Origin: Pseudomonadota bacterium
GTDB taxonomy: Bacteria; Pseudomonadota; Gammaproteobacteria; Pseudomonadales; Halieaceae
NCBI GenBank assembly: GCA_030591305.1
Contig: JAUVBI010000114.1
Coordinates: 1 to 9,589 of the forward strand
Reading direction: 5' to 3'
DNA length: 9,589 bases
The notes under the pieces are model-generated. The model did not search any database and was not told where the DNA came from. It saw only the letters and a list, made by a program, of their open reading frames with translations. Within the stretch, counting starts at the first letter, position 1. Every line of letters starts with the position of its first letter. The position numbers and the translations under genes were made by a program. Positions 2 through 9,589 of this stretch are shown here, piece after piece.

Positions 2-1183
2 ATCTGGATGCCAGATGAAACCCTGGAGGTACGTGCGCGGGTAAGGGCGTTTGCCGATGCCGTGGTACGACCAATGGCTCATAGTTTAAATAATACTCCT
101 GAAAATATAGAGGCCTTCCCCTGGGAGCTGGTAAAACTTATGGGTGATGCCGGCCTTTTTCGCATACCCTTCGAAAAGAAATACGGCGGTGACGGGCTGG
201 AATATCCAACCCTCGCAACTATGGTGATGCTGGAAGAAATCTCCTATCTCAGCTCCGGGCTTGCCGCGGCCATGGTAGACGTGCAACTTATTCTGTTTGG
301 ACACACGCTCAAGCACGCCCAGGAGAGCGTTAAGAACAGGTTGTTTCCCGCACTGTGTGCTGGCGACATCGTCGGTTCTTTTGCCACCAGCGAACCGGCG
401 GCCAGTACAGACCTGAGCGTAAAGGCCCTGCAAACGGAAGCGCGAACGGTTAGCGGCGGCTACAAAATAAGTGGTCAAAAACGCTGGATTACCAACGCCC
501 CTGTGGCCCAACACATGTTTGTACTGTGCAAGATGGACAGTAGCATGAGTATGCTTCTGGTGGATATGAGTGCCGACGGTGTACGTGTGGGTGAGCCTGA
601 CAAGAAAATGGGTAATCACTGCCAACTGACTGCTGACGTTTATCTTGACGATGTATTCGTACCAGAGGAAAACCTGGTTGGGGATGCTGGCAAAGGTCTG
701 AAGGCAGCCCTGACATCCCTTACTCTGGGCAGGGTCGGGATAGGCGCCTGTGGCGTGGGCATGGCTCAGGCCGCTTTTGATTTTGCCGTGGACTACATGC
801 AAAAGAGACATGTATTTGGCAAGCCTATTTCCCAGTTCCAATATTGGCAGTTCAAATTTGCAGAGTATGCAACACAGCTGGAGAATGCTCGTAATCTCTA
901 TATTAAAGCTGCACTAACCGTGGACAAGAGTCGTCCCAATGTGCAAACCATGTGCGCCATGGCCAAACTGGATGGAAGTTCCCTGGCGGGTACAATTGCA
1001 CGCGATGCGATTCAAGTCTGTGGTGGTTATGGCTTTGTTAAAGAATTGGCGGCCACCGGTGAGCAATTTCCACTCGAAGCAATCTATCGAGATTCCAAAA
1101 TAGGGGAGATTTACGAGGGGGCCAATGAAATACAGCGGCTTGTAATAGCACGTGGTATTTTCGGTAAGGGAACTATTGGCTAG
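2..1183 (+). CDS. Acyl-CoA dehydrogenase (FAD-dependent), probably 5'-truncated by the window edge
   Basis: This gene encodes a flavoprotein that introduces the alpha,beta double bond into an acyl-CoA in beta-oxidation, passing electrons to ETF; it should be cytoplasmic. Numbering from the Met at base 8 (391 residues), an N-terminal helical domain is followed by SGQKRWITNA (155-164), a GRVGIGACGVGMAQAAFDF segment (241-259), RHVFGKPISQFQ (267-278), CGGYGF (338-343) and IYEGANEIQRLVIAR (368-382). E370 matches the catalytic base of short/medium-chain family members. The usual TEPxAGSD flavin/substrate loop reads TSEPAASTD (127-135). About eight extra residues (LAATGEQF) lie between CGGYGFVKE and the Glu motif. 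The frame is open to the left edge and the Met at base 8 starts close to the first conserved helix, so the true start is probably upstream. The gene converges on the molybdoenzyme operon. Family is certain; chain-length or steroid specificity cannot be read. Confidence 0.93.
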   Translation: MWMPDETLEVRARVRAFADAVVRPMAHSLNNTPENIEAFPWELVKLMGDAGLFRIPFEKKYGGDGLEYPTLATMVMLEEISYLSSGLAAAMVDVQLILFGHTLKHAQESVKNRLFPALCAGDIVGSFATSEPAASTDLSVKALQTEARTVSGGYKISGQKRWITNAPVAQHMFVLCKMDSSMSMLLVDMSADGVRVGEPDKKMGNHCQLTADVYLDDVFVPEENLVGDAGKGLKAALTSLTLGRVGIGACGVGMAQAAFDFAVDYMQKRHVFGKPISQFQYWQFKFAEYATQLENARNLYIKAALTVDKSRPNVQTMCAMAKLDGSSLAGTIARDAIQVCGGYGFVKELAATGEQFPLEAIYRDSKIGEIYEGANEIQRLVIARGIFGKGTIG

Positions 1184-1232: not shown

Positions 1233-1248
1233 AAAAAAAGCTGGGCTT
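1233..1248 (-). terminator. Weak candidate terminator at the end of the molybdoenzyme operon
   Basis: On the minus strand, overlapping the chaperone stop codon, AAGC-CCA-GCTT forms a four-pair stem that runs directly into a tract of seven T residues. The stem is much shorter than normal for a rho-independent terminator, so this is tentative. No better terminator is visible in the 63 bases between the two convergent genes. Confidence 0.25.
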
Positions 1249-1885
1249 ATCCATTCATTGGTACCTGCCTGACCACAATTGTGTCACCTATAACTTCACT
1301 AAGATACGCGTGGTCGGCTTCTACAAACTCGCTAAGTAGCATCACCAATTGAGCGTAAACAGGGGTGTCCCTCTTAGTCAACGGCGCCTTCATCCCTTCA
1401 ATTAATGGCCTTAGGTGGCGTGTCAAAAAATCTCTTTGTGCCCTCAAAATAGCTATGTTGTTATCTTCGGACAAGCTTTCAAGGTAAGTGAGGTAGTGCA
1501 TGAACTCCAATTCAATCTGTAAAGAGTCGGGCCAAAAGTCATTATTACTGGAGGAAAAATCAAGTCCAAAATATTCGTAAAACCGGAACAGTTCCTCGAA
1601 TAACTTTTGATCCCCGTCGTTTGTATACGAGCGGCCGTGTAAAGAAACGGCAGCGGCTCCCGTATCAAAATTCACGGTAAAAACCTCCTCCAGGTCATCC
1701 AGAGTATGGTTACCTTCAATTCCTGGTGTAGCGGAATAAAAAGAATAAGGCAGGCCGCTATCGGCGCCTTCAAGCAAAGTAAATGTATTTTCCCCCAAAG
1801 ATTTTTGCCATACCCGGGCTGTCGGAAATGCCATGTAGGCACCAAATTGGCTGTATAGGCTACTTCTTGATTCTGACGCACGCAT
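1247..1885 (-). CDS. TorD/NarJ-like assembly chaperone (delta protein) of the molybdoenzyme
   Basis: This is a cytoplasmic chaperone expected to bind the catalytic subunit, help insert the molybdenum cofactor and prevent premature Tat export; it is not normally part of the mature enzyme. The protein is 212-214 residues, mostly helical, with no signal peptide. Family features, numbered from the upstream Met, are RFYEYFGLDF (103-112), PDSLQIELEFMHYLT (121-135) and DFLTRHLRPLI (154-164), the helix pattern of TorD/DmsD/NarJ proteins. Two ATGs compete. The one at 1891 has a purine-rich AAGAG directly abutting it, whereas the one at 1885 has the same element six bases away; 1885 is therefore preferred, giving a protein starting MRASESR. 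It is the last gene of the operon, in the same position as EbdD in the ebdABCD layout. Family is confident; partner is inferred from adjacency. Confidence 0.88.
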   Translation of the reverse strand: MRASESRSSLYSQFGAYMAFPTARVWQKSLGENTFTLLEGADSGLPYSFYSATPGIEGNHTLDDLEEVFTVNFDTGAAAVSLHGRSYTNDGDQKLFEELFRFYEYFGLDFSSSNNDFWPDSLQIELEFMHYLTYLESLSEDNNIAILRAQRDFLTRHLRPLIEGMKAPLTKRDTPVYAQLVMLLSEFVEADHAYLSEVIGDTIVVRQVPMNG

Positions 1886-1891
1886 AGGCAT

Positions 1892-1896
1892 CTCTT
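1892..1896 (-). promoter_or_regulatory. Ribosome binding site that decides the chaperone start
   Basis: The minus strand reads AAGAG here. It lies six bases before the ATG at 1883-1885 but immediately next to the ATG at 1889-1891. Normal spacing favours the downstream ATG and shortens the protein by two residues. Confidence 0.55.
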
Positions 1897-1922
1897 AATA
1901 ATGGGTGATTAACAGCAATGAA

Positions 1923-2576
1923 TCAGGCATCAATTTCAAACGGGAGCCAATTCCCCGAAAAAGATTTCTGTGCAGAACGTTCTTTGTTATTGCCATCCCA
2001 TACCGCAAAAGCAATACCGGAGATGGCACCGGGTTTGAAGCCAACCTGATCGTGCGAAATCATACTGCTGCGCAAACTGCGCTGAAACACCACGTGCCAA
2101 TGGCCATTGCGGTATTGGGAGGCCGCAGACAAGCCCAGCGTACTGCCGCCTCGACGTTTGCTGGTGCCAAATCCATGGGCTATAACATCGTATGGTTCCG
2201 CCTTGTCTGCACGCCAGAACCAGGCATTAACGGGGTTGTCGGCGTCACCCATTGTCATGGAATTTGCTGTGGGCGTCAGGGGGAACATCACGGCAAGGCT
2301 ATCGATAAACTGATCCAGGTCTTCGATCTTGTCGTCTCTGGATTCGTCTTTCCAGGACACATAAACATTGGCTGTTTTTTCATTGTGGGCAATCTTGAAC
2401 TTCAAATGGTTGATTTTGCCGTGATCTTCACTTAATGCCATAAAAGGCGAAAGGTGTTGCACCATGCCAACCGGCGTTTGGAACAGGTCGACATCGTGTT
2501 CTTTAACACCTGACCACGCACTGGAAAAAGGGTCCAGTAGTTTTTCATTCGATGCTTTTATATATGATAGTTTCAT
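1923..2576 (-). CDS. Haem b-binding gamma subunit of a type II DMSO-reductase-family dehydrogenase (EbdC-like)
   Basis: This electron-transfer subunit should take electrons from the iron-sulfur subunit through one haem b and pass them to a periplasmic acceptor such as cytochrome c. The 217-residue protein matches the roughly 215-residue EbdC size and the beta-sandwich haem domain shared by ethylbenzene, dimethylsulfide and selenate enzymes. Diagnostic segments are NSMTMGDADNPVNAWFWRAD (105-124, the family MGD..PVN.W.W motif) and QKSFSGNWLPFEID near the end. M109 and K204 fall where the Met and Lys haem ligands of EbdC sit; this assignment is from memory of the family plus position. There is no hydrophobic N-terminal segment, so export probably depends on the Tat signal of the alpha subunit. 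The start has AAGGA seven bases upstream. It lies 39 bp after the beta gene and 37 bp before the preferred chaperone start. Confidence 0.9.
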   Translation of the reverse strand: MKLSYIKASNEKLLDPFSSAWSGVKEHDVDLFQTPVGMVQHLSPFMALSEDHGKINHLKFKIAHNEKTANVYVSWKDESRDDKIEDLDQFIDSLAVMFPLTPTANSMTMGDADNPVNAWFWRADKAEPYDVIAHGFGTSKRRGGSTLGLSAASQYRNGHWHVVFQRSLRSSMISHDQVGFKPGAISGIAFAVWDGNNKERSAQKSFSGNWLPFEIDA

Positions 2577-2615
2577 CCAATTATCCTTTCCAGGTACATT
2601 GTATTTAGATCGGGT

Positions 2616-3659
2616 TTATACCGGGTCGTTGGTAAATTGCGCGAACCTGTCGTGCCATTTACGGCTGATAAGTAAATCCATAAGCTCTGACGGTTCACCC
2701 CGTTTTCTTTTTTCTCTTTCCGCAATTACCACACCCAGGGCCCGGTGAACATCCTTGCCAAAATAAGATTCAAGCACAGAGGCAGGCATGCGCATTTCGT
2801 CTGTCAGTTCCATATCTTCATCGTAGGCCAGGGCGGACATTGGCGGCACATAATAGACATTGGGCTGGGTGCCGTACTCCGGGTGCAGGGGAATAGCCAC
2901 TTTCCACTTGTGTACCAGCTTATTGACCAGACTGTCCTGGTCACCAATATGGCCGAATGCGCGGGTTCGTCCCGGGCACTGGCGATTACAAGCACTGGCT
3001 ATACCCTCATCAATTCGCGGAAAGCATTCAATACACTTCTCGCTTTTCTGGGTAACCGGGTTGAAGAACACCATCTTGTAGGGACACGCTTCAACGCAAT
3101 GCCTGTGGCCTTCGCACTTATCCTGGTCGATGAGAACAATGCCGTCATCGCGTTTGGAAATAGCATTACGCGAACAGGCATCGATACAGGCGGCATGGCT
3201 GCAATGATTGCATTTTTTTGGCAGGTAAAAATGGTAGGGGTTAGGCCAGTCGCCGTCACCCTGGTCTTCATCCCAGTTGTAGGTCCATTCGGGTGTGCCG
3301 CCCTGAGCTGATTTGGGTTGCAAATGGACGGATTGTCCCTTTCCACCATACAGTACCTCCTTATGGTTGAACTGCAGGTTGTCACCATTGTCAACCAGGG
3401 TGGGAATGATACCTGCACGTGGGTTGCCGCGCTCATCGTAGCCACCTCCCTTGCTCTCAAAGCCCCGGGGGAAACCCTGGCCGGGAGCTGTTGCCACACT
3501 CATCCAGCGCATGTGTTCTGCACCTTCGCGGTCTGTCCACAAGGTTTTACAGGCGACCGTACAGGCCTGACAGGCCATGCATTTGTTGAGGTCGATAACA
3601 GTGGCGACCTGTTTAGAGGACGACATAAGCTCTTGCTTACTTGGTACATTAATATTCAT
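2616..3659 (-). CDS. Iron-sulfur beta subunit of a type II DMSO-reductase-family dehydrogenase (NarH/EbdB-like)
   Basis: This subunit should relay electrons from the molybdenum subunit to the haem subunit. The 347-residue protein has four cysteine groups. C27/C30/C33/C37 form the first and C150/C153/C158/C162 the second. C182/C188/C192 form the third, which has only three cysteines, and C209/C212/C224/C228 the fourth. Fifteen cysteines fit three [4Fe-4S] clusters plus one [3Fe-4S] cluster, the known NarH/EbdB arrangement. The PGRTRAFGHIGD segment (229-240) after the last group is also family-typical. In the third group the residue that is Trp in NarH is His (H185). The length is close to EbdB (about 350) and far short of NarH (about 510). 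There is no signal peptide, so it is likely co-exported with alpha. The start is supported by AAAGGA about eight bases upstream; the gene begins 20 bp after the alpha stop. Confidence 0.95.
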   Translation of the reverse strand: MNINVPSKQELMSSSKQVATVIDLNKCMACQACTVACKTLWTDREGAEHMRWMSVATAPGQGFPRGFESKGGGYDERGNPRAGIIPTLVDNGDNLQFNHKEVLYGGKGQSVHLQPKSAQGGTPEWTYNWDEDQGDGDWPNPYHFYLPKKCNHCSHAACIDACSRNAISKRDDGIVLIDQDKCEGHRHCVEACPYKMVFFNPVTQKSEKCIECFPRIDEGIASACNRQCPGRTRAFGHIGDQDSLVNKLVHKWKVAIPLHPEYGTQPNVYYVPPMSALAYDEDMELTDEMRMPASVLESYFGKDVHRALGVVIAEREKRKRGEPSELMDLLISRKWHDRFAQFTNDPV

Positions 3660-3679
3660 TTTTTGAATCCTTTAGCTGT

Positions 3680-6577
3680 TCAAGCAGGCACTTTTTCAAA
3701 ATTCACACGCAGAGCACGGTCACCGGTGGGATTGGGTGAGCCAACAAAGAAACGATGGCGCAATTGTTTGTAGTCCATCGCCAGGTGGATACCCTTGGGC
3801 ATGCCAATCAACATGGCATCATGTGACTTCCAGTCCTTGAACTGGTTGGGCTCCCACATATAAACAGCGATCTGGTCAGGGCCAACCCCGGCAGAAGTCG
3901 AGGCCATCAACTCGGATGAGTCGTAATCGTTGTACATGCGAATCATGTCGCCATCACTAATGCCTCTTCTCTTGGCCTCCTGCCTATTGATAAACGCAAC
4001 GGGTTGGCCGCGGTGCAATCTCATCATCATGGGTGTCATCTGGTGTAGCGTATGAACGCTGATTCGAGGGTGGCCACTGATAAGATGATAGGGATGCATG
4101 CCGCCTATTGGCGGAAGATCCTTGTGCACAGGGTGGGCTTCGCCGGCTTCAATAAACCAGTCATGGTCCATATAAAACTGGGCCCGACGGGTATGGGTGG
4201 CATAAGGCAGTTTTTTCTCGACATTCCAACCCATGGCATAAAAAGGTTTATCTGGCACCACATCACTGGCCTGGGTTTCGCGCTGGTGCATGGCCCCCAT
4301 GGATTGAACTCGCACGGTGCCGTCTTTTTCAAACTGCTCAAAGGTATAACCCCTGGGCATGATGCCAGTTGCTTCATTGAGTGCGACAAACTCCTTTTGC
4401 ACATCGAGGTTTGTCAACAGCTCGCCGCCCAGAGTAAAATTGTTATGCAGGTCGGCATACTTCTGCTTTAGCCCCATGTTATCGACAAACTCGCTCATTC
4501 CACGGGCGGCGGCGCGTTCACCAATTTTTCTCATCAGGTCTACAAAAATTTCCCATTCAGCTCGGGCTTCACCGGGTGGACTAACGGCTTTTTGCTGCAT
4601 GGATATAAATGGAAGAAAACCAAACGAGGCGGTCATATCTTCTTTTTCGTAGTACCAGGCCGCAGGAAGAACAATGTCCGCATAAGAGGCCGAACTGGAC
4701 ATGCGCGTTTCAATGTTAAAAATCATCTTCGCCTTGGGCCAGAGATTCTCTGTGTACATTCTGCGCCCACTGCGCTGGCGACGCAGGGGGTTGTGAGCCA
4801 TATACATTAGTACCTGGGGGGCGGTTTCCAGTAACGTATCATCAATAATGCCTTTCTCTACACCCTCCCTGAAATAGTCCCCGAAGGTTTTACCTACAGC
4901 CTGATCCTGCCATTCCTGGCGATCCCACAACTGGCTATACCCGGCGTGTTTATACATCCACAATGATGGGGGTATCCAGCCAAACTTTTTGGTCAACTCG
5001 GTCATAATGTCATTGCCGATTTGTTCGCGAGTGGCGTGAGGATCATTTTCCAGAATCTGTTTAGCCATCACTTTTTCGAAATCATGTAGCTGCTTTAATC
5101 CACCATTGGCAATGGTCTTTTTCGCCATAAATAAGAATTCAGCATGGTCGGCAAAAGCGATGAAGTTGTTAGTGCCGGTGCCCGGTTTTCCCCAGTTGCC
5201 AGTGAGGCCCATTGCCAGTAAAGCAGACCTTTCCATCAGGTCGCCGTGGTAGTGTTTGGCCGAGGTAAACCCGATATACAGATGAGTGCGCCGGGTAGAC
5301 ACTTTTTTAGCCATCATACGAATAACGCTGGGTTTGATACGGCAAATTTCAGACGCCTTTTCCGGTGTGGAATCTTGGTCCAGGCTTGCCTTCAATCGGG
5401 CCAGTGAGGGCTCTACCTGCACTTTCTGACCATTTTTTAATATGACGTCCCAGCTTCCTTTCAGAGCTTGTGTGCCATCAAAACTCAGAGTTCCCTGGGG
5501 TGCCTCTGCTAGCGCATTAGTTTTCAGGTCGTAAAAATAGAGCTGATCCGGGCGGCCACCATTCATATCTTCCGCCGTCAGAAATTTGTGGTTATCCTTT
5601 CTAATCAGCATGGCTAAATCTGTTTGCTCCCGCACGAAGTCCTTATCGTGCCAATCGTTGGCCAGAATTTCCTGACACACCCCCAGCCAGAAAGCTGAAT
5701 CTGAAGCGGCCTTGACAGGAATATGAATGTCGGCGTGAACACCACTGGCATTGAAATCCGGGCTTAATATGACGATCTCCGACCCGTTGTAGCGCGCCTC
5801 GGTAATGAAGTGATAAACCGGTGGTGCGGTATAAGCCCAGTTGGTATGGGTAAATATCAACAGCTCGGCATCCATGAGGTTGTCACAGGAGAACCCCATG
5901 CGCATCTTGCCGAAAACATGCGAAATCCCCTTGAGATCATCGCCAATCTCAACGTTGAAGTCGGGAGCCAGCCCTCCCAGTATTCCTGTCATTCTTGCAG
6001 CGCCAGCCCAGGCCGCGGAACCTGCGTGAACATGTGGCGCATCCAGATGAAAGCCTCCAGGCCCCACGTCCTGATGTGCATCCAAAATTGCATCGGCAAT
6101 GTCAGTTAGCGCCTCGTCCCAGCTAATGCGCTTCCATTTACCTTCCCCGCGCTCGCCCAGGCGCTTCATTGGGTAACGCAACCGCTCTTCGCTGTAGAGC
6201 AGGCTGTGAAAGCCACAGCCTTTTTGGCAGCCAAGAGGATTAAAGTCAGGGTAGTTATCATTGGAGGCGTGAGCCTTTGCCGTTTGTTCCTCACGCCAGA
6301 CGATGCCATTTTTGCTGTACACGCGAAAAGAACAGCCTGCAGGAAGACACTGGTTGTTGTGGGAACCCCAGGAAATGTCATCCCACTGCCACTCATTGCG
6401 ATAGACATCTTCCCAGGAGTTATAGGAAATTTTGGATTTCCCGCTAGCAAGGTCATCTAGAAACGACTCTGATGTAAGTCCATTGAGCGAAACCAGTGAA
6501 AGCCCAGCCCCTACGCTGCCTACCTTGATAAAGTCGCGCCTGTTTAAACCATGCTTTTGCGCATTACCCTTGTTCAT
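3680..6577 (-). CDS. Catalytic molybdopterin alpha subunit, ethylbenzene/steroid C25 dehydrogenase-like (type II DMSO reductase family)
   Basis: This is the Mo-bis-MGD catalytic subunit, acting in the periplasm. The 965-residue protein starts with a Tat signal (NRRDFIK at 12-18, hydrophobic stretch to about 34). A His/Cys cluster site follows: H73, C77, C82 and C117 (in NPLGCQKGC), the FS0 pattern of NarG-type enzymes. After it come RISWDEAL (150-157) and a helix with PHVHAGSAAW (181-190). D214, in EIGDDLKG, aligns by context with the Asp molybdenum ligand of NarG/EbdA. HFITEARYNGSEIVILSPDF (256-275) and EQTDLAMLIRKD are further family landmarks. Residues from about 825 to the end are the C-terminal dinucleotide-binding domain (HPYHLISGHPRISVH). 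Length is near EbdA and the roughly 108-kDa steroid C25 dehydrogenase alpha subunit, and far short of NarG (about 1,245). AAAAGG lies eight bases before the ATG. It is first in an A-B-C-D operon. Oxygen-independent hydroxylation of a C-H bond is inferred; the exact substrate is unknown. A thiosulfate/sulfide- or oxyanion-type reductase is less likely on gene order. Confidence 0.93.
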   Translation of the reverse strand: MNKGNAQKHGLNRRDFIKVGSVGAGLSLVSLNGLTSESFLDDLASGKSKISYNSWEDVYRNEWQWDDISWGSHNNQCLPAGCSFRVYSKNGIVWREEQTAKAHASNDNYPDFNPLGCQKGCGFHSLLYSEERLRYPMKRLGERGEGKWKRISWDEALTDIADAILDAHQDVGPGGFHLDAPHVHAGSAAWAGAARMTGILGGLAPDFNVEIGDDLKGISHVFGKMRMGFSCDNLMDAELLIFTHTNWAYTAPPVYHFITEARYNGSEIVILSPDFNASGVHADIHIPVKAASDSAFWLGVCQEILANDWHDKDFVREQTDLAMLIRKDNHKFLTAEDMNGGRPDQLYFYDLKTNALAEAPQGTLSFDGTQALKGSWDVILKNGQKVQVEPSLARLKASLDQDSTPEKASEICRIKPSVIRMMAKKVSTRRTHLYIGFTSAKHYHGDLMERSALLAMGLTGNWGKPGTGTNNFIAFADHAEFLFMAKKTIANGGLKQLHDFEKVMAKQILENDPHATREQIGNDIMTELTKKFGWIPPSLWMYKHAGYSQLWDRQEWQDQAVGKTFGDYFREGVEKGIIDDTLLETAPQVLMYMAHNPLRRQRSGRRMYTENLWPKAKMIFNIETRMSSSASYADIVLPAAWYYEKEDMTASFGFLPFISMQQKAVSPPGEARAEWEIFVDLMRKIGERAAARGMSEFVDNMGLKQKYADLHNNFTLGGELLTNLDVQKEFVALNEATGIMPRGYTFEQFEKDGTVRVQSMGAMHQRETQASDVVPDKPFYAMGWNVEKKLPYATHTRRAQFYMDHDWFIEAGEAHPVHKDLPPIGGMHPYHLISGHPRISVHTLHQMTPMMMRLHRGQPVAFINRQEAKRRGISDGDMIRMYNDYDSSELMASTSAGVGPDQIAVYMWEPNQFKDWKSHDAMLIGMPKGIHLAMDYKQLRHRFFVGSPNPTGDRALRVNFEKVPA

Positions 6578-6948: not shown

Positions 6949-8877
6949 ATGGGAAATCTCAACCAGGCTCTTAGCACCGCATTGACAACCACGTTATTGC
7001 TCACTGCATCGGGTATTGCCGCCTCCACAGCGTTTGCCTCATCGGCAACGTTAACAGAGGCTGCCAAAGCCTATTCTCCCCCGGCAAACAATACACAGCC
7101 AAACAATGTGTATTGGGGCGATTCACACCTGCACACCGGCTTGTCCCTGGATGCCGGCTTGTTTGGCGCCACCCTGGGTCCCGATGACGCCTATCGCCTG
7201 GCGCGCGGTGAGCAGATAACCGCCTCTTCCGGTGTGCCGGTTAAATTAGCTCGCCCATTGGATTGGATGGTTGTTGCCGACCATTCTGACATGATGGGTA
7301 TTGCCACTGATATAAAAAATGGGACACCTAATATTCTGGCCAATAAAAAAGGTAAGGAATGGTACGAGGGCTTTCAAAAGGGCGGCAAGGCAGCGACTGA
7401 TGCCGCATTTGATCTGATCGGTAATTTTGCCCAGATGACGTTACCCAAACAACTGGTAGAGGATTATAGCCCTGGTTCAGAAGTGTTTAGTGGTGTTTGG
7501 AAGGATATCGTCGGCTCAGCGGAAACATACAATGAACCCGGTCTGTTCACCGCCTTTATCGGCTATGAATGGACCTCTGTACCCAAGGGATTTAACCTTC
7601 ATCGCAATGTCATATTTCGTGATAACGCAGACAAAGCTTTACAAGTTCTACCTTTAACCACGCAGCCACCCAAGGGAACAACTGACCCCCTTGCGCTTTA
7701 TAAATGGCTTGAAGAATACGAAAGCAAAACCGGAGGCCGTGTTTTTGCTTTCCCTCATAATGGTAATCTGTCTAACGGCTGGATGTTTCCTACTGAAAAA
7801 ACCTATGCCGGTGGTGTGGTCAATGAAGAGTATGTAAGGCTGCGTGCCAAATGGGAGCCCCATTATGAGATTACCCAGATAAAAGGGGACGGTGAAGCTC
7901 ACCCCTATCTTTCGCCTGACGATGAGTTCGCTGACTATGAAACATGGGACGTGGGCAACCTCGATATCAGTGAGTTAAAAAGACCTGAGATGCTAAAAGG
8001 GGAGTATGCCCGCGAGGCGCTGAAGCAGGGTTTGTTGTTGGAAAAGAAGCTGGGGTACAACCCCTATAAGTTCGGCGTGGGCGGTGCTACCGACAGCCAT
8101 ACCGCGTTGTCCACAGCAGATGAAGACAACTTTTTTGGAAAGTCTACCAGTGTAGAGCCCTCCCCAGATCGGATCAGTCACCCTTTTGTGACTGCAGAAA
8201 AGGGCTCATACCCGGGTTATTCCCTGGTGGCCTCTGGCTACACCGGCATTTGGGCTTATGAAAATACGCGAACCGCATTATTTGATGCCATGGAGCGCAA
8301 GGAAACCTACGGCACAACCGGCCCGCGCATGACGGTTCGACTTTTTGGAGGCTGGAACTTTGACCAGAGCGATATCTATGCCAACAACAGTGCGGCGATA
8401 GGCTACGCAAAGGGTGTTCCTATGGGAGGAGACCTGAAGAAGGCCAAAGGGAAAAAGGCACCTACGTTTATGGTGTCGGCAATGCGTGACCCCATGAGCG
8501 CAAACCTCGATAGAATCCAAATTATTAAGGGGTGGCTGGACAAGAAAGGTAAGCTTCACGAGAAGATCTATGACGTTGCTGTATCGGATGGCCGCAAGAT
8601 CAAAAACGGCCGCTGTAAGACGCCAGTTGGTAATACAGTAGATCTGGAAACGGCTACCTGGAGCAACAGTATTGGCGACACCCAATTGGCAACAGTGTGG
8701 ACAGACCCAGATTTCGACAGCGATGAGTCAGCCTTCTACTATGCAAGAGTGATGGAAATTCCAACACCACGCTGGGTTGTTTACGACAAGGTGAAAATGG
8801 GTGCTGTGATTCCAGAAGAAGCCGAATTGATAGGCCAGGAAAGAGCGTACACTTCAGCTATTTGGTATACACCGTAA
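6949..8877 (+). CDS. Secreted DUF3604 family protein (PHP-like metal-binding fold)
   Basis: This is a 642-residue exported protein of unknown function. The first 30 residues form a Sec-type signal peptide, hydrophobic from about 11 to 29, with a likely cleavage at AFA-SS (30/31). Family hallmarks are [16 protein letters not shown] (55-70), [14 protein letters not shown] (104-117), GYEWTS (205-210), [12 protein letters not shown] (266-277), [19 protein letters not shown] (379-397) and the closing [12 protein letters not shown]. Likely metal ligands are D58, H60, H62, D111, H112, H270, D382 and H384, by analogy with the PHP phosphoesterase-like fold; this is inference. GAGG lies seven bases before the ATG. 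It is transcribed away from the molybdoenzyme operon, shares its control region and is exported to the same compartment. The gene looks intact and stands alone, followed by a strong terminator. Family assignment is firm; a hydrolase role is only a guess. Confidence 0.93.
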
Positions 8878-8927: not shown

Positions 8928-9038
8928 GCATTGTAAAGACAAGCTATATTCCTTTAATGCCAAGATACAATTAACCTATGGTCGTATAGTTGGCTATTTG
9001 GTTACAGATGGCTTGCCAGTAAATTGGAAAAGGCGACA
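8928..9038 (+). promoter_or_regulatory. AT-rich upstream region of the thiolase gene
   Basis: The interval between the terminator and the thiolase start is AT-rich and should contain its promoter. TACAAT at 8966-8971 resembles a -10 hexamer, but no good -35 is visible at 16-18 bases. An AGG lies five bases before the ATG at 9039 and serves as the ribosome binding site. Confidence 0.35.
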
Positions 9039-9589
9039 ATGAATTCAGAAATGGTTATAGCAGGCGTGGGCATGACCCCCTTCAAAAAGCCTGGGAAGTC
9101 GGATACCTACGACGTCATGGGGGAGAGTGCCGCGCGGGCGGCACTGAAAGACGCCGGGATATCTTATTCCCTGATCGAGCAGGCCTTTTGTGGCTATGTG
9201 TATGGCGACAGCTGTGCAGGCCAGGCAGCACTGTACCGCCTGGATATCAATGGCATTCCCATTTTCAACGTCAACAACAACTGTGCCAGTGGTTCGTCGG
9301 CTTTTGCGTTGGCCACCCAGGCAGTTGAAAGCGGCAACGTAGAGTGCGCCCTGGCGCTGGGCTTTGAAGAAATGCTGCCCGGGGCAATTGACATGGTTTT
9401 TCCTGAAAAAGTCGGCCCACTGGTACGCCATGAAAATGCCATCGCCAATATCATGAATTTCACCGAGGACGAGCGCAAAGCTCCGCCTGCCATCGCCATG
9501 TTTGGTGCTCAAGTTGACGCTATATTGGACTGTGGTGTAAGTGAGGAAACCATTGCTGCCATGAGCGTAAAGTCGCGGCTACACGCCGC
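9039..9589 (+). CDS. Thiolase-family protein, SCP-x/lipid-transfer type (5' part; runs off the window)
   Basis: This is the N-terminal 183 codons of a thiolase-fold enzyme that would cleave or condense acyl-CoA chains in the cytoplasm. The opening VIAGVGMTPFKKPGKSD and YDVMGESAARAALKDAGI (24-41), followed by AFCGYVYGDSCAGQAALY, are typical of the SCP-x/acetyl-CoA acetyltransferase-like lipid-transfer group rather than of FadA. The nucleophilic cysteine is C82 in NNNCASGSSAFALA (79-92). GFEEMLPGAID (about 108 onward) matches the family GFEKM-type segment. The C-terminal His and Cys catalytic motifs lie beyond the window. In steroid degraders members of this group act on C-17 side chains, often with a DUF35 OB-fold partner; whether one follows here is not visible. 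The start at 9039 has an AGG five bases upstream, and the ATG at 9008 meets a stop within four codons. Confidence 0.88.
   Translation, partial: MNSEMVIAGVGMTPFKKPGKSDTYDVMGESAARAALKDAGISYSLIEQAFCGYVYGDSCAGQAALYRLDINGIPIFNVNNNCASGSSAFALATQAVESGNVECALALGFEEMLPGAIDMVFPEKVGPLVRHENAIANIMNFTEDERKAPPAIAMFGAQVDAILDCGVSEETIAAMSVKSRLHA

What the first reader, a model, noticed from the sequence alone, without database searches (positions are those of the whole stretch)
1247..6577. Probable oxygen-independent C-H hydroxylase operon set among acyl-CoA degradation genes
Seen: a four-gene operon with Tat-type molybdopterin alpha, 15-Cys beta, haem-type gamma and TorD-like delta. Known: ethylbenzene dehydrogenase, p-cymene dehydrogenase and steroid C25 dehydrogenase share this make-up and use water to hydroxylate hydrocarbons. 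Inferred: with an acyl-CoA dehydrogenase and an SCP-x-type thiolase alongside, the locus may start catabolism of a sterol/isoprenoid side chain or similar substrate. This would be notable if the host is an aerobic bacterium, where O2-dependent enzymes usually do this step.
Basis: partly seen in the sequence, partly recalled or inferred. Interest (0 to 1): 0.75.

Follow-up and report, generated by a model that had tools for sequence, protein, structure and literature searches.

The report
Probable oxygen-free hydrocarbon hydroxylase operon
A probably marine bacterium carries a four-gene molybdenum enzyme related to ethylbenzene dehydrogenase, which likely adds water-derived oxygen to a hydrocarbon; it is a new branch of a known enzyme family, its substrate is unknown, and its active site resembles the ethylbenzene branch more than the steroid branch as published.

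Summary
A minus-strand operon (1247-6577, gaps 20-39 bases) encodes a Tat-type molybdopterin alpha, a beta with all 15 EbdB cysteines, an EB_dh-type haem gamma and a TorD-like delta. Alpha is 50% identical to ethylbenzene dehydrogenase alpha (EbdA) and under purifying selection. In a 60-row tree it lies in a 44-row clade with EbdA (100/100), apart from ClrA and NarG. All 44 rows keep EbdA His192, which papers say steroid C25 dehydrogenase and alkane hydroxylase AhyA lack. So the C-H hydroxylase reading is supported; the sterol/isoprenoid reading is not. Authentic S25DH, CmdA, DdhA and SerA were not in the tree. The window's sub-branch has a second His (177) beside the catalytic-site His (182) in 14 of 14 rows (13 distinct; 2 of 124 elsewhere), and Leu, Phe and Ala replace Trp87, Trp481 and Asp485, so ethylbenzene is probably not the substrate. 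The neighbouring acyl-CoA dehydrogenase and thiolase are not in the operon and have no close relative in the nearest host genome. Twelve relatives' genomes all have COX1-family genes; five have NarG, and the nearest has a truncated NarG. New member of a known kind.

The parts
3680..6577 (-). alpha subunit: Tat-type Mo-bis-MGD catalytic subunit, 965 aa; D213 (EbdA D223, Mo ligand), H182 (EbdA H192), K441 (K450), H177 (I187), L78 (W87), F472 (W481), A476 (D485)
2616..3659 (-). beta subunit: Fe-S protein, 347 aa, 15 Cys all aligned with EbdB
   Evidence: TIGR03478 484.9 bits, cut-off 480.7
1923..2576 (-). gamma subunit: EB_dh haem b protein, 217 aa; keeps the conserved TMG Met and the Lys of ERSxxKSxSG (their role as axial ligands is inferred)
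   Evidence: TIGR03477 173.3 bits, cut-off 169.85
1247..1891 (-). delta: TorD/NarJ-like assembly chaperone, 214 aa
   Evidence: TIGR03482 112.2 bits, below its cut-off of 152.3
2..1183 (+). acyl-CoA dehydrogenase, N-terminus outside the window; convergent with the operon, link to it not shown
6949..8877 (+). DUF3604 protein, 642 aa, divergent from the operon, link not shown
9024..9587 (+). SCP-x-like thiolase, N-terminal 188 aa, cut off by the window end; link not shown

Best explanation
[quoted passage not shown] Delta helps to load the Mo-bis-MGD cofactor into alpha, and the folded alpha-beta-gamma complex is exported by the Tat system. At Mo(VI)=O the enzyme removes a hydride from an activated (benzylic or allylic) carbon, and the resulting cation receives the oxygen, which is refilled from water. 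D213 binds Mo, K441 holds it monodentate, and H182 is the acid/base. The two electrons pass singly over FS0-FS4 to haem b and on to a high-potential cytochrome c, then to a terminal oxidase or to nitrate respiration. The substrate is probably an alkylaromatic or cyclic-terpene-like hydrocarbon other than ethylbenzene, because Trp87, Trp481 and Asp485 of EbdA are replaced and a second His (177) is gained. Shown here: gene order, homology, phylogenetic place, conserved cofactor-site residues, selection. Inferred: reaction, direction, substrate class, electron acceptor.
For: 50% identity to EbdA in the trimmed alignment (49% by BLASTP for P0090, which is 99.8% EbdA). Careful IQ-TREE of 60 chosen rows: clade of 44 rows 100/100 with EbdA and the window; ClrA and NarG outside. 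A 221-row FastTree gives the same main split. 15 of 15 beta Cys. Gamma retains the most conserved Met and Lys. dN 0.037 and dS 0.68 over 893 codons against L001. His177 in 14 of 14 rows of the window's sub-branch (L001 and L081 are one contig, so 13 distinct) against 2 of 124 other His192 rows, not all independent. Reaction and redox scheme of EbDH, with haem b at +256 mV, from PMC8840923 (passages). In relatives, 4 of 16 loci of the clade given (L007, L008, L009, L018; L007 and L008 near identical) share a cluster of two acyl-CoA dehydrogenases, AMP ligase, enoyl-CoA hydratase, thiolase and FAD oxidase around the operon, and the genomes of L007, L009 and L018 are the only 3 of 12 with BoxB, which fits attack on an alkylaromatic in that branch.
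Against: Alpha misses two curated cut-offs: TIGR03479 918.1 of 984.75 bits and EbdA equivalog NF042978 1181.4 of 2000; the EbdB, EbdC and EbdD equivalogs are missed too. No substrate evidence in the window itself. BoxB was not found in G001 or G002, the genomes with the nearest alphas. CmdA, S25DH, DdhA and SerA could not be placed. That position 187 lines the pocket is not shown.
Confidence: 0.78

Rival explanations
1. Steroid or isoprenoid side-chain hydroxylase working like S25DH/S26DH, feeding the neighbouring acyl-CoA dehydrogenase and SCP-x thiolase.
For: Same subunit make-up (PMC6016249, PMC7411048, passages). SCP-x-like thiolase and an acyl-CoA dehydrogenase adjacent. Several relatives' genomes hold many paralogues, as S. 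denitrificans does. G001 has an HsaA-like match of 353 bits, below the cut-off.
Against: His192 present, reported absent in S25DH. Neighbours not co-directional and without close relatives in G001. HsaA over its cut-off in 0 of 12 relatives' genomes, with weaker matches in 4.
Confidence: 0.12
2. Alkane C2 hydroxylase like AhyABC.
For: Same family; proposed EbDH orthologue in D. oleovorans (PMC7803848, passages).
Against: Retrieved ahyA sequences are reported to carry Pro at His192; in the trees Pro occurs outside the window's clade only.
Confidence: 0.05
3. Respiratory reductase or sulfide dehydrogenase (chlorate, selenate, nitrate or DMS).
For: Type II DMSO reductase architecture is shared.
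Against: 32% identity to ClrA and 25% to NarG in the trimmed alignment, both outside the supported clade. None of the seven window proteins scanned is a chlorite dismutase or a c-type cytochrome. DdhA and SerA were not in the tree.
Confidence: 0.05

Closest known systems
Ethylbenzene dehydrogenase EbdABCD, Aromatoleum aromaticum (2ivf)
   Same: Subunits, 15 beta Cys, Mo-Asp, Lys450, His192, EB_dh gamma, chaperone
   Different: 50% identity; W87L, W481F, D485A and I187H
p-Cymene dehydrogenase CmdABC
   Same: Same subcluster as EbDH and S25DH according to a paper read in passages (PMC6016249)
   Different: Sequence not obtained, so closeness not measured
Steroid C25 dehydrogenase / C26 dehydrogenase
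   Same: Same subunit make-up
   Different: S25DH reported without the active-site His that the window keeps
Putative alkane C2 hydroxylase AhyABC
   Same: Same family
   Different: Pro reported in place of His192

Membership tests
EbDH-type C-H hydroxylases (subclade of type II DMSO reductases) | Alpha in one supported clade with EbdA, apart from NarG and ClrA | tested here: met
   44-row clade 100/100
EbDH-type C-H hydroxylases (subclade of type II DMSO reductases) | Mo-Asp223, Lys450 and His192 equivalents | tested here: met
   D213, K441, H182
EbDH-type C-H hydroxylases (subclade of type II DMSO reductases) | Beta with 15 Cys for FS1-FS4, gamma of EB_dh type | tested here: met
   15 of 15 Cys; PF09459 99.7 bits, cut-off 33.3
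EbDH-type C-H hydroxylases (subclade of type II DMSO reductases) | Water-dependent hydroxylation of a hydrocarbon | not testable with these tools
   Needs an assay
Ethylbenzene dehydrogenase proper | Reaches the NCBIfam EbdA-D equivalog cut-offs | tested here: not met
   Alpha 1181.4 of 2000, beta 535.1 of 740, gamma 205.9 of 400, delta 99.7 of 360 bits
Ethylbenzene dehydrogenase proper | Trp87 and Trp481 (pocket role recalled) | tested here: not met
   L78 and F472
Type II DMSO reductase alpha, TIGR03479 | Curated cut-off 984.75 bits | tested here: not met
   918.1 bits; the beta and gamma subfamily cut-offs are met, the delta one (TIGR03482) is not
Steroid C25 dehydrogenase | No His at the EbdA His192 site | tested here: not met
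   H182 present; S25DH statement from PMC6153880
AhyA alkane hydroxylase | Pro at the His192 site | tested here: not met
   H182 present; PMC7803848
ClrA / NarG reductases | Groups with ClrA or NarG | tested here: not met
DdhA / SerA | Groups with DdhA or SerA | not tested
   No authentic sequence was obtained

The most novel reading that the evidence does not exclude
The window's branch is a separate, unstudied class of water-dependent C-H hydroxylase with a paired-His pocket, used by respiring (oxidase-bearing) marine bacteria to open a hydrocarbon without spending O2, with electrons sent to cytochrome c and the respiratory chain. The many paralogues in related genomes would be a diversified set for different hydrocarbons.
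Probability: 0.3. Interest if true: 0.65.

Novelty: new member of a known kind. Interest (0 to 1): 0.42.

Why it matters
In the papers seen here, EbDH-type enzymes are studied in denitrifying or sulfate-reducing hydrocarbon and sterol degraders. A well-supported separate branch in bacteria whose relatives all carry COX1-family genes suggests that oxygen-independent C-H hydroxylation may not be confined to strict anaerobic life. If the published statements on S25DH and AhyA hold generally, the His192 site is a cheap first marker for sorting the many metagenomic homologues, which sources name only 'DMSO reductase family type II enzyme' where they name them.

Tried and rejected
Steroid side-chain reading from the neighbours: set aside as evidence, because the acyl-CoA dehydrogenase is widespread (Pseudomonas 81-82%, Duganella 78%, Thalassotalea 76-77%) and G001 lacks close relatives of it and of the thiolase.

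Anaerobic control: no FNR-like site above chance (4 found, 5.4 expected); promoter and terminator scans at chance level (7 found against 6.6 expected for each).

Conserved neighbours of the window's own branch: only L027 gives flanks among its held members (L001 is a 3.4 kb contig). There an acyl-CoA dehydrogenase and an alpha/beta hydrolase lie upstream, co-directional, and a TonB receptor downstream. One alpha hit (P0003) and two dehydrogenase hits (P0137, P0164) list the same longest contig length, 5448; whether any share a contig could not be checked.

Authentic S25DH, CmdA, DdhA and SerA could not be fetched; a plasmid search gave ClrA and NarG. Peptide motifs translated from the published ahyA primers were in none of 237 rows, so no AhyA anchor. 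The flavin motif of delta-24 desaturase/limonene dehydrogenase (PMC11061730, passages) occurred once in the loci then held, in L052, with no weight. Structure prediction was not run: with 50% identity to a crystal structure and no coordinates returned it would have added little.
Full report
Observation. The window is probably a whole contig of 9589 bases (its DUF3604 protein is listed with that as its longest contig). It holds four co-directional minus-strand genes at 1247-6577 with gaps of 20, 39 and 31 bases, so very likely one operon. Alpha (965 aa) starts with an NRRDFIK Tat-type motif. Its best solved relative is ethylbenzene dehydrogenase alpha, 2ivf_A, 1104 bits over residues 9-962; perchlorate reductase alpha follows at 353 bits. 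Identity to EbdA is 50% in the trimmed alignment; P0090, 99.8% identical to EbdA, is 49% by BLASTP. Beta matches 2ivf_B at 529 bits and aligns all 15 Cys. Gamma matches 2ivf_C at 167 bits and nitrite oxidoreductase subunit C (7b04_C) at 64 bits, and Pfam EB_dh. Delta is a TorD/NarJ-like chaperone. Against NCBIfam, beta (484.9 of 480.7) and gamma (173.3 of 169.85) pass their type II subfamily cut-offs; alpha (918.1 of 984.75) and delta (112.2 of 152.3) fall short, and all four miss the EbdA-D equivalog cut-offs. Alpha against the 93% relative L001 gives dS 0.68 and dN 0.037 over 893 codons, so the gene is under purifying selection.

Place in the family. A FastTree tree of 221 rows (237 rows aligned, 4 short ones and then near-identical ones dropped) and a careful IQ-TREE tree of 60 rows that I picked to span it give the same main split; they differ on whether the branch of L009 is sister to the window's larger group (FastTree) or unresolved (IQ-TREE). 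NarG (E. coli plasmid copy) and ClrA (Ideonella) lie outside a supported clade of 54 rows. This splits into 10 rows and 44 rows, both 100/100. The 44 include EbdA and the window, and all 44 carry His at EbdA position 192; one further row with His (L019) lies among the 10, so at least two changes. The other nine of the 10 carry Ala, Pro, Cys, Val or Ser. The paper on AhyA says that His192 is Pro in all its ahy sequences (PMC7803848, passages), and the steroid hydroxylase review says that S25DH has no such His (PMC6153880, section 22). The window therefore sides with EbdA. This rests on published statements for S25DH and AhyA, since their sequences were not at hand; CmdA, DdhA and SerA were not placed either. 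The checks warn that NarG, ClrA and the L092 row are long branches whose place is unsure.

The window's own branch. WIN, P0001-P0003, P0005-P0011, L027 and L001/L081 form a supported branch (8 of 8 drawn rows, 100/98; 0.995). All 14 rows (13 distinct) have His at EbdA position 187 besides His192; 2 of the 124 other His192 rows do (P0093, P0100). The window has L78, F437, F472 and A476 where EbdA has W87, F446, W481 and D485. That these line the EbDH pocket is recalled. The direct reading is a changed pocket, so another substrate.

Context. The acyl-CoA dehydrogenase (2-1183, plus) runs towards delta with a 63-base gap; DUF3604 (6949-8877) and thiolase (9024 on) run away from alpha. In G001, the genome of L001 (nearest alpha, 93%), the best matches are 33% for the dehydrogenase, 44% for the thiolase piece and 54% for DUF3604, so this neighbourhood was not found there, though the MAG is fragmented. 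Sixteen loci of the clade, many with short flanks, were given to (L001, a 3.4 kb contig, and L019 were left out; L014 and L017 are cut before position 192 and count by clade). Acyl-CoA dehydrogenase genes lay in the flanks of L007, L008, L009, L018 and L014, and on the longer contig of L027. L007/L008, L009 and L018 share one arrangement (Pfam). Six of the seven genomes examined hold 38-69 acyl-CoA dehydrogenase matches each, the seventh (G003) 6, so single neighbours mean little, while the shared cluster means more. BoxB, the oxygen-dependent benzoyl-CoA epoxidase, was over its cut-off in 3 of 12 genomes, those of L018, L007 and L009. This suggests an alkylaromatic pathway for that branch, joining an oxygen-independent first step with an oxygen-dependent ring step; it is not evidence about the window's own substrate. 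HsaA, a steroid-ring marker, was over its cut-off in 0 of 12; weaker matches were in 4 of 12, among them G001 at 353 bits.

Host. No genome is held. The named DUF3604 relatives among the best 120 include Pseudomonadales, Halieaceae, Halioglobus, Thalassotalea and Oceanicoccus at 74-83%, so a marine gammaproteobacterium is likely. G001 shares its family group with G064, whose match has the same contig coordinates as L013, titled Halieaceae, so G001 is probably of that family. There 2 of 140 genomes had an alpha at E 1e-200 or better, G001 and G064, and 1 of 390 in the order sample, G001 itself: the operon is rare there, and lateral acquisition is a likely reason. COX1-family genes were over the cut-off in 12 of 12 relatives' genomes. 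NarG was over the cut-off in 5 of 12, and G001 has a truncated NarG of 1019 bits. Aerobic or facultative life is likely for relatives and unproven for the window's host.

Mechanism. EbDH works by Mo(VI)-dependent hydroxylation with water and one-electron steps over FS0-FS4 to a +256 mV haem b (PMC8840923, passages). The conserved Mo-Asp, Lys, His, beta Cys and gamma subunit make the same scheme likely here. In an oxidase-bearing host the high haem potential would pass electrons at the level of cytochrome c. This last step is inference.

Literature. A search for ethylbenzene dehydrogenase with Halieaceae gave one paper, which in the passages seen mentions the enzyme for Rhodocyclaceae only. The parts listed of the searches (listings are capped, and abstracts shown only by their start) show no paper that describes this branch. 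Subscription papers are mostly not in the library. Related metagenomic sequences may have appeared in published trees that I could not see. Papers seen in passages: PMC7411048, PMC6016249, PMC10100899, PMC6153880 (also one section), PMC8840923, PMC7803848, PMC11061730, PMC10256201.

Noticed in passing
G002:C63 (L111-L112), G005:C79 (L115-L116), G007:C147 (L117-L118): A conserved cluster with four alpha genes on each contig (37-39% to the window; the N-termini printed for G005 and G007 show no Tat motif), beta and delta genes, an MFS transporter, an AMP-binding-like protein, a DUF3237 protein, a CopD-like protein (below Pfam's cut-off) and a 475-aa protein (78-93% identical between contigs) with no Pfam match at E 1e-4 and no NCBIfam match at E 1e-40. 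In G002 it lies on the same contig as the window-type operon.
   Followed up: partly
G004, G005, G006, G007, G002: Many EbDH-family alpha matches per genome at E 1e-40 or better: 12 in G005, 11 in G007, 8 in G004, 7 in G006, 5 in G002 (places; some genes are split in two); 1-5 in the other seven genomes.
   Followed up: partly
L007, L008, L009, L018: EbDH-type operon inside a shared cluster with two acyl-CoA dehydrogenases, AMP ligase, enoyl-CoA hydratase, thiolase and FAD_binding_4 oxidase; BoxB in the genomes of L007, L009 and L018 and in no other of the 12 searched (L008's was not searched).
   Followed up: partly
window 6949-8877: DUF3604 protein; 3-13 matches per genome, some of them pieces, in 6 of 12 relatives' genomes (8 in G001) and none in the other 6. 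A paper search for DUF3604 gave one paper, on Chlamydia mutants, seen as a listing.
   Followed up: partly
L005, L006, L017: A right-handed beta-helix/NosD-like protein (L006 copy scanned; 82% in L005, 93% in L017) near EbDH-type operons.
   Followed up: no
L092, conjugative plasmid of Alisedimentitalea scapharcae: A DMSO reductase type alpha with beta, chaperone and cytochrome c next to a chlorite dismutase family gene.
   Followed up: no
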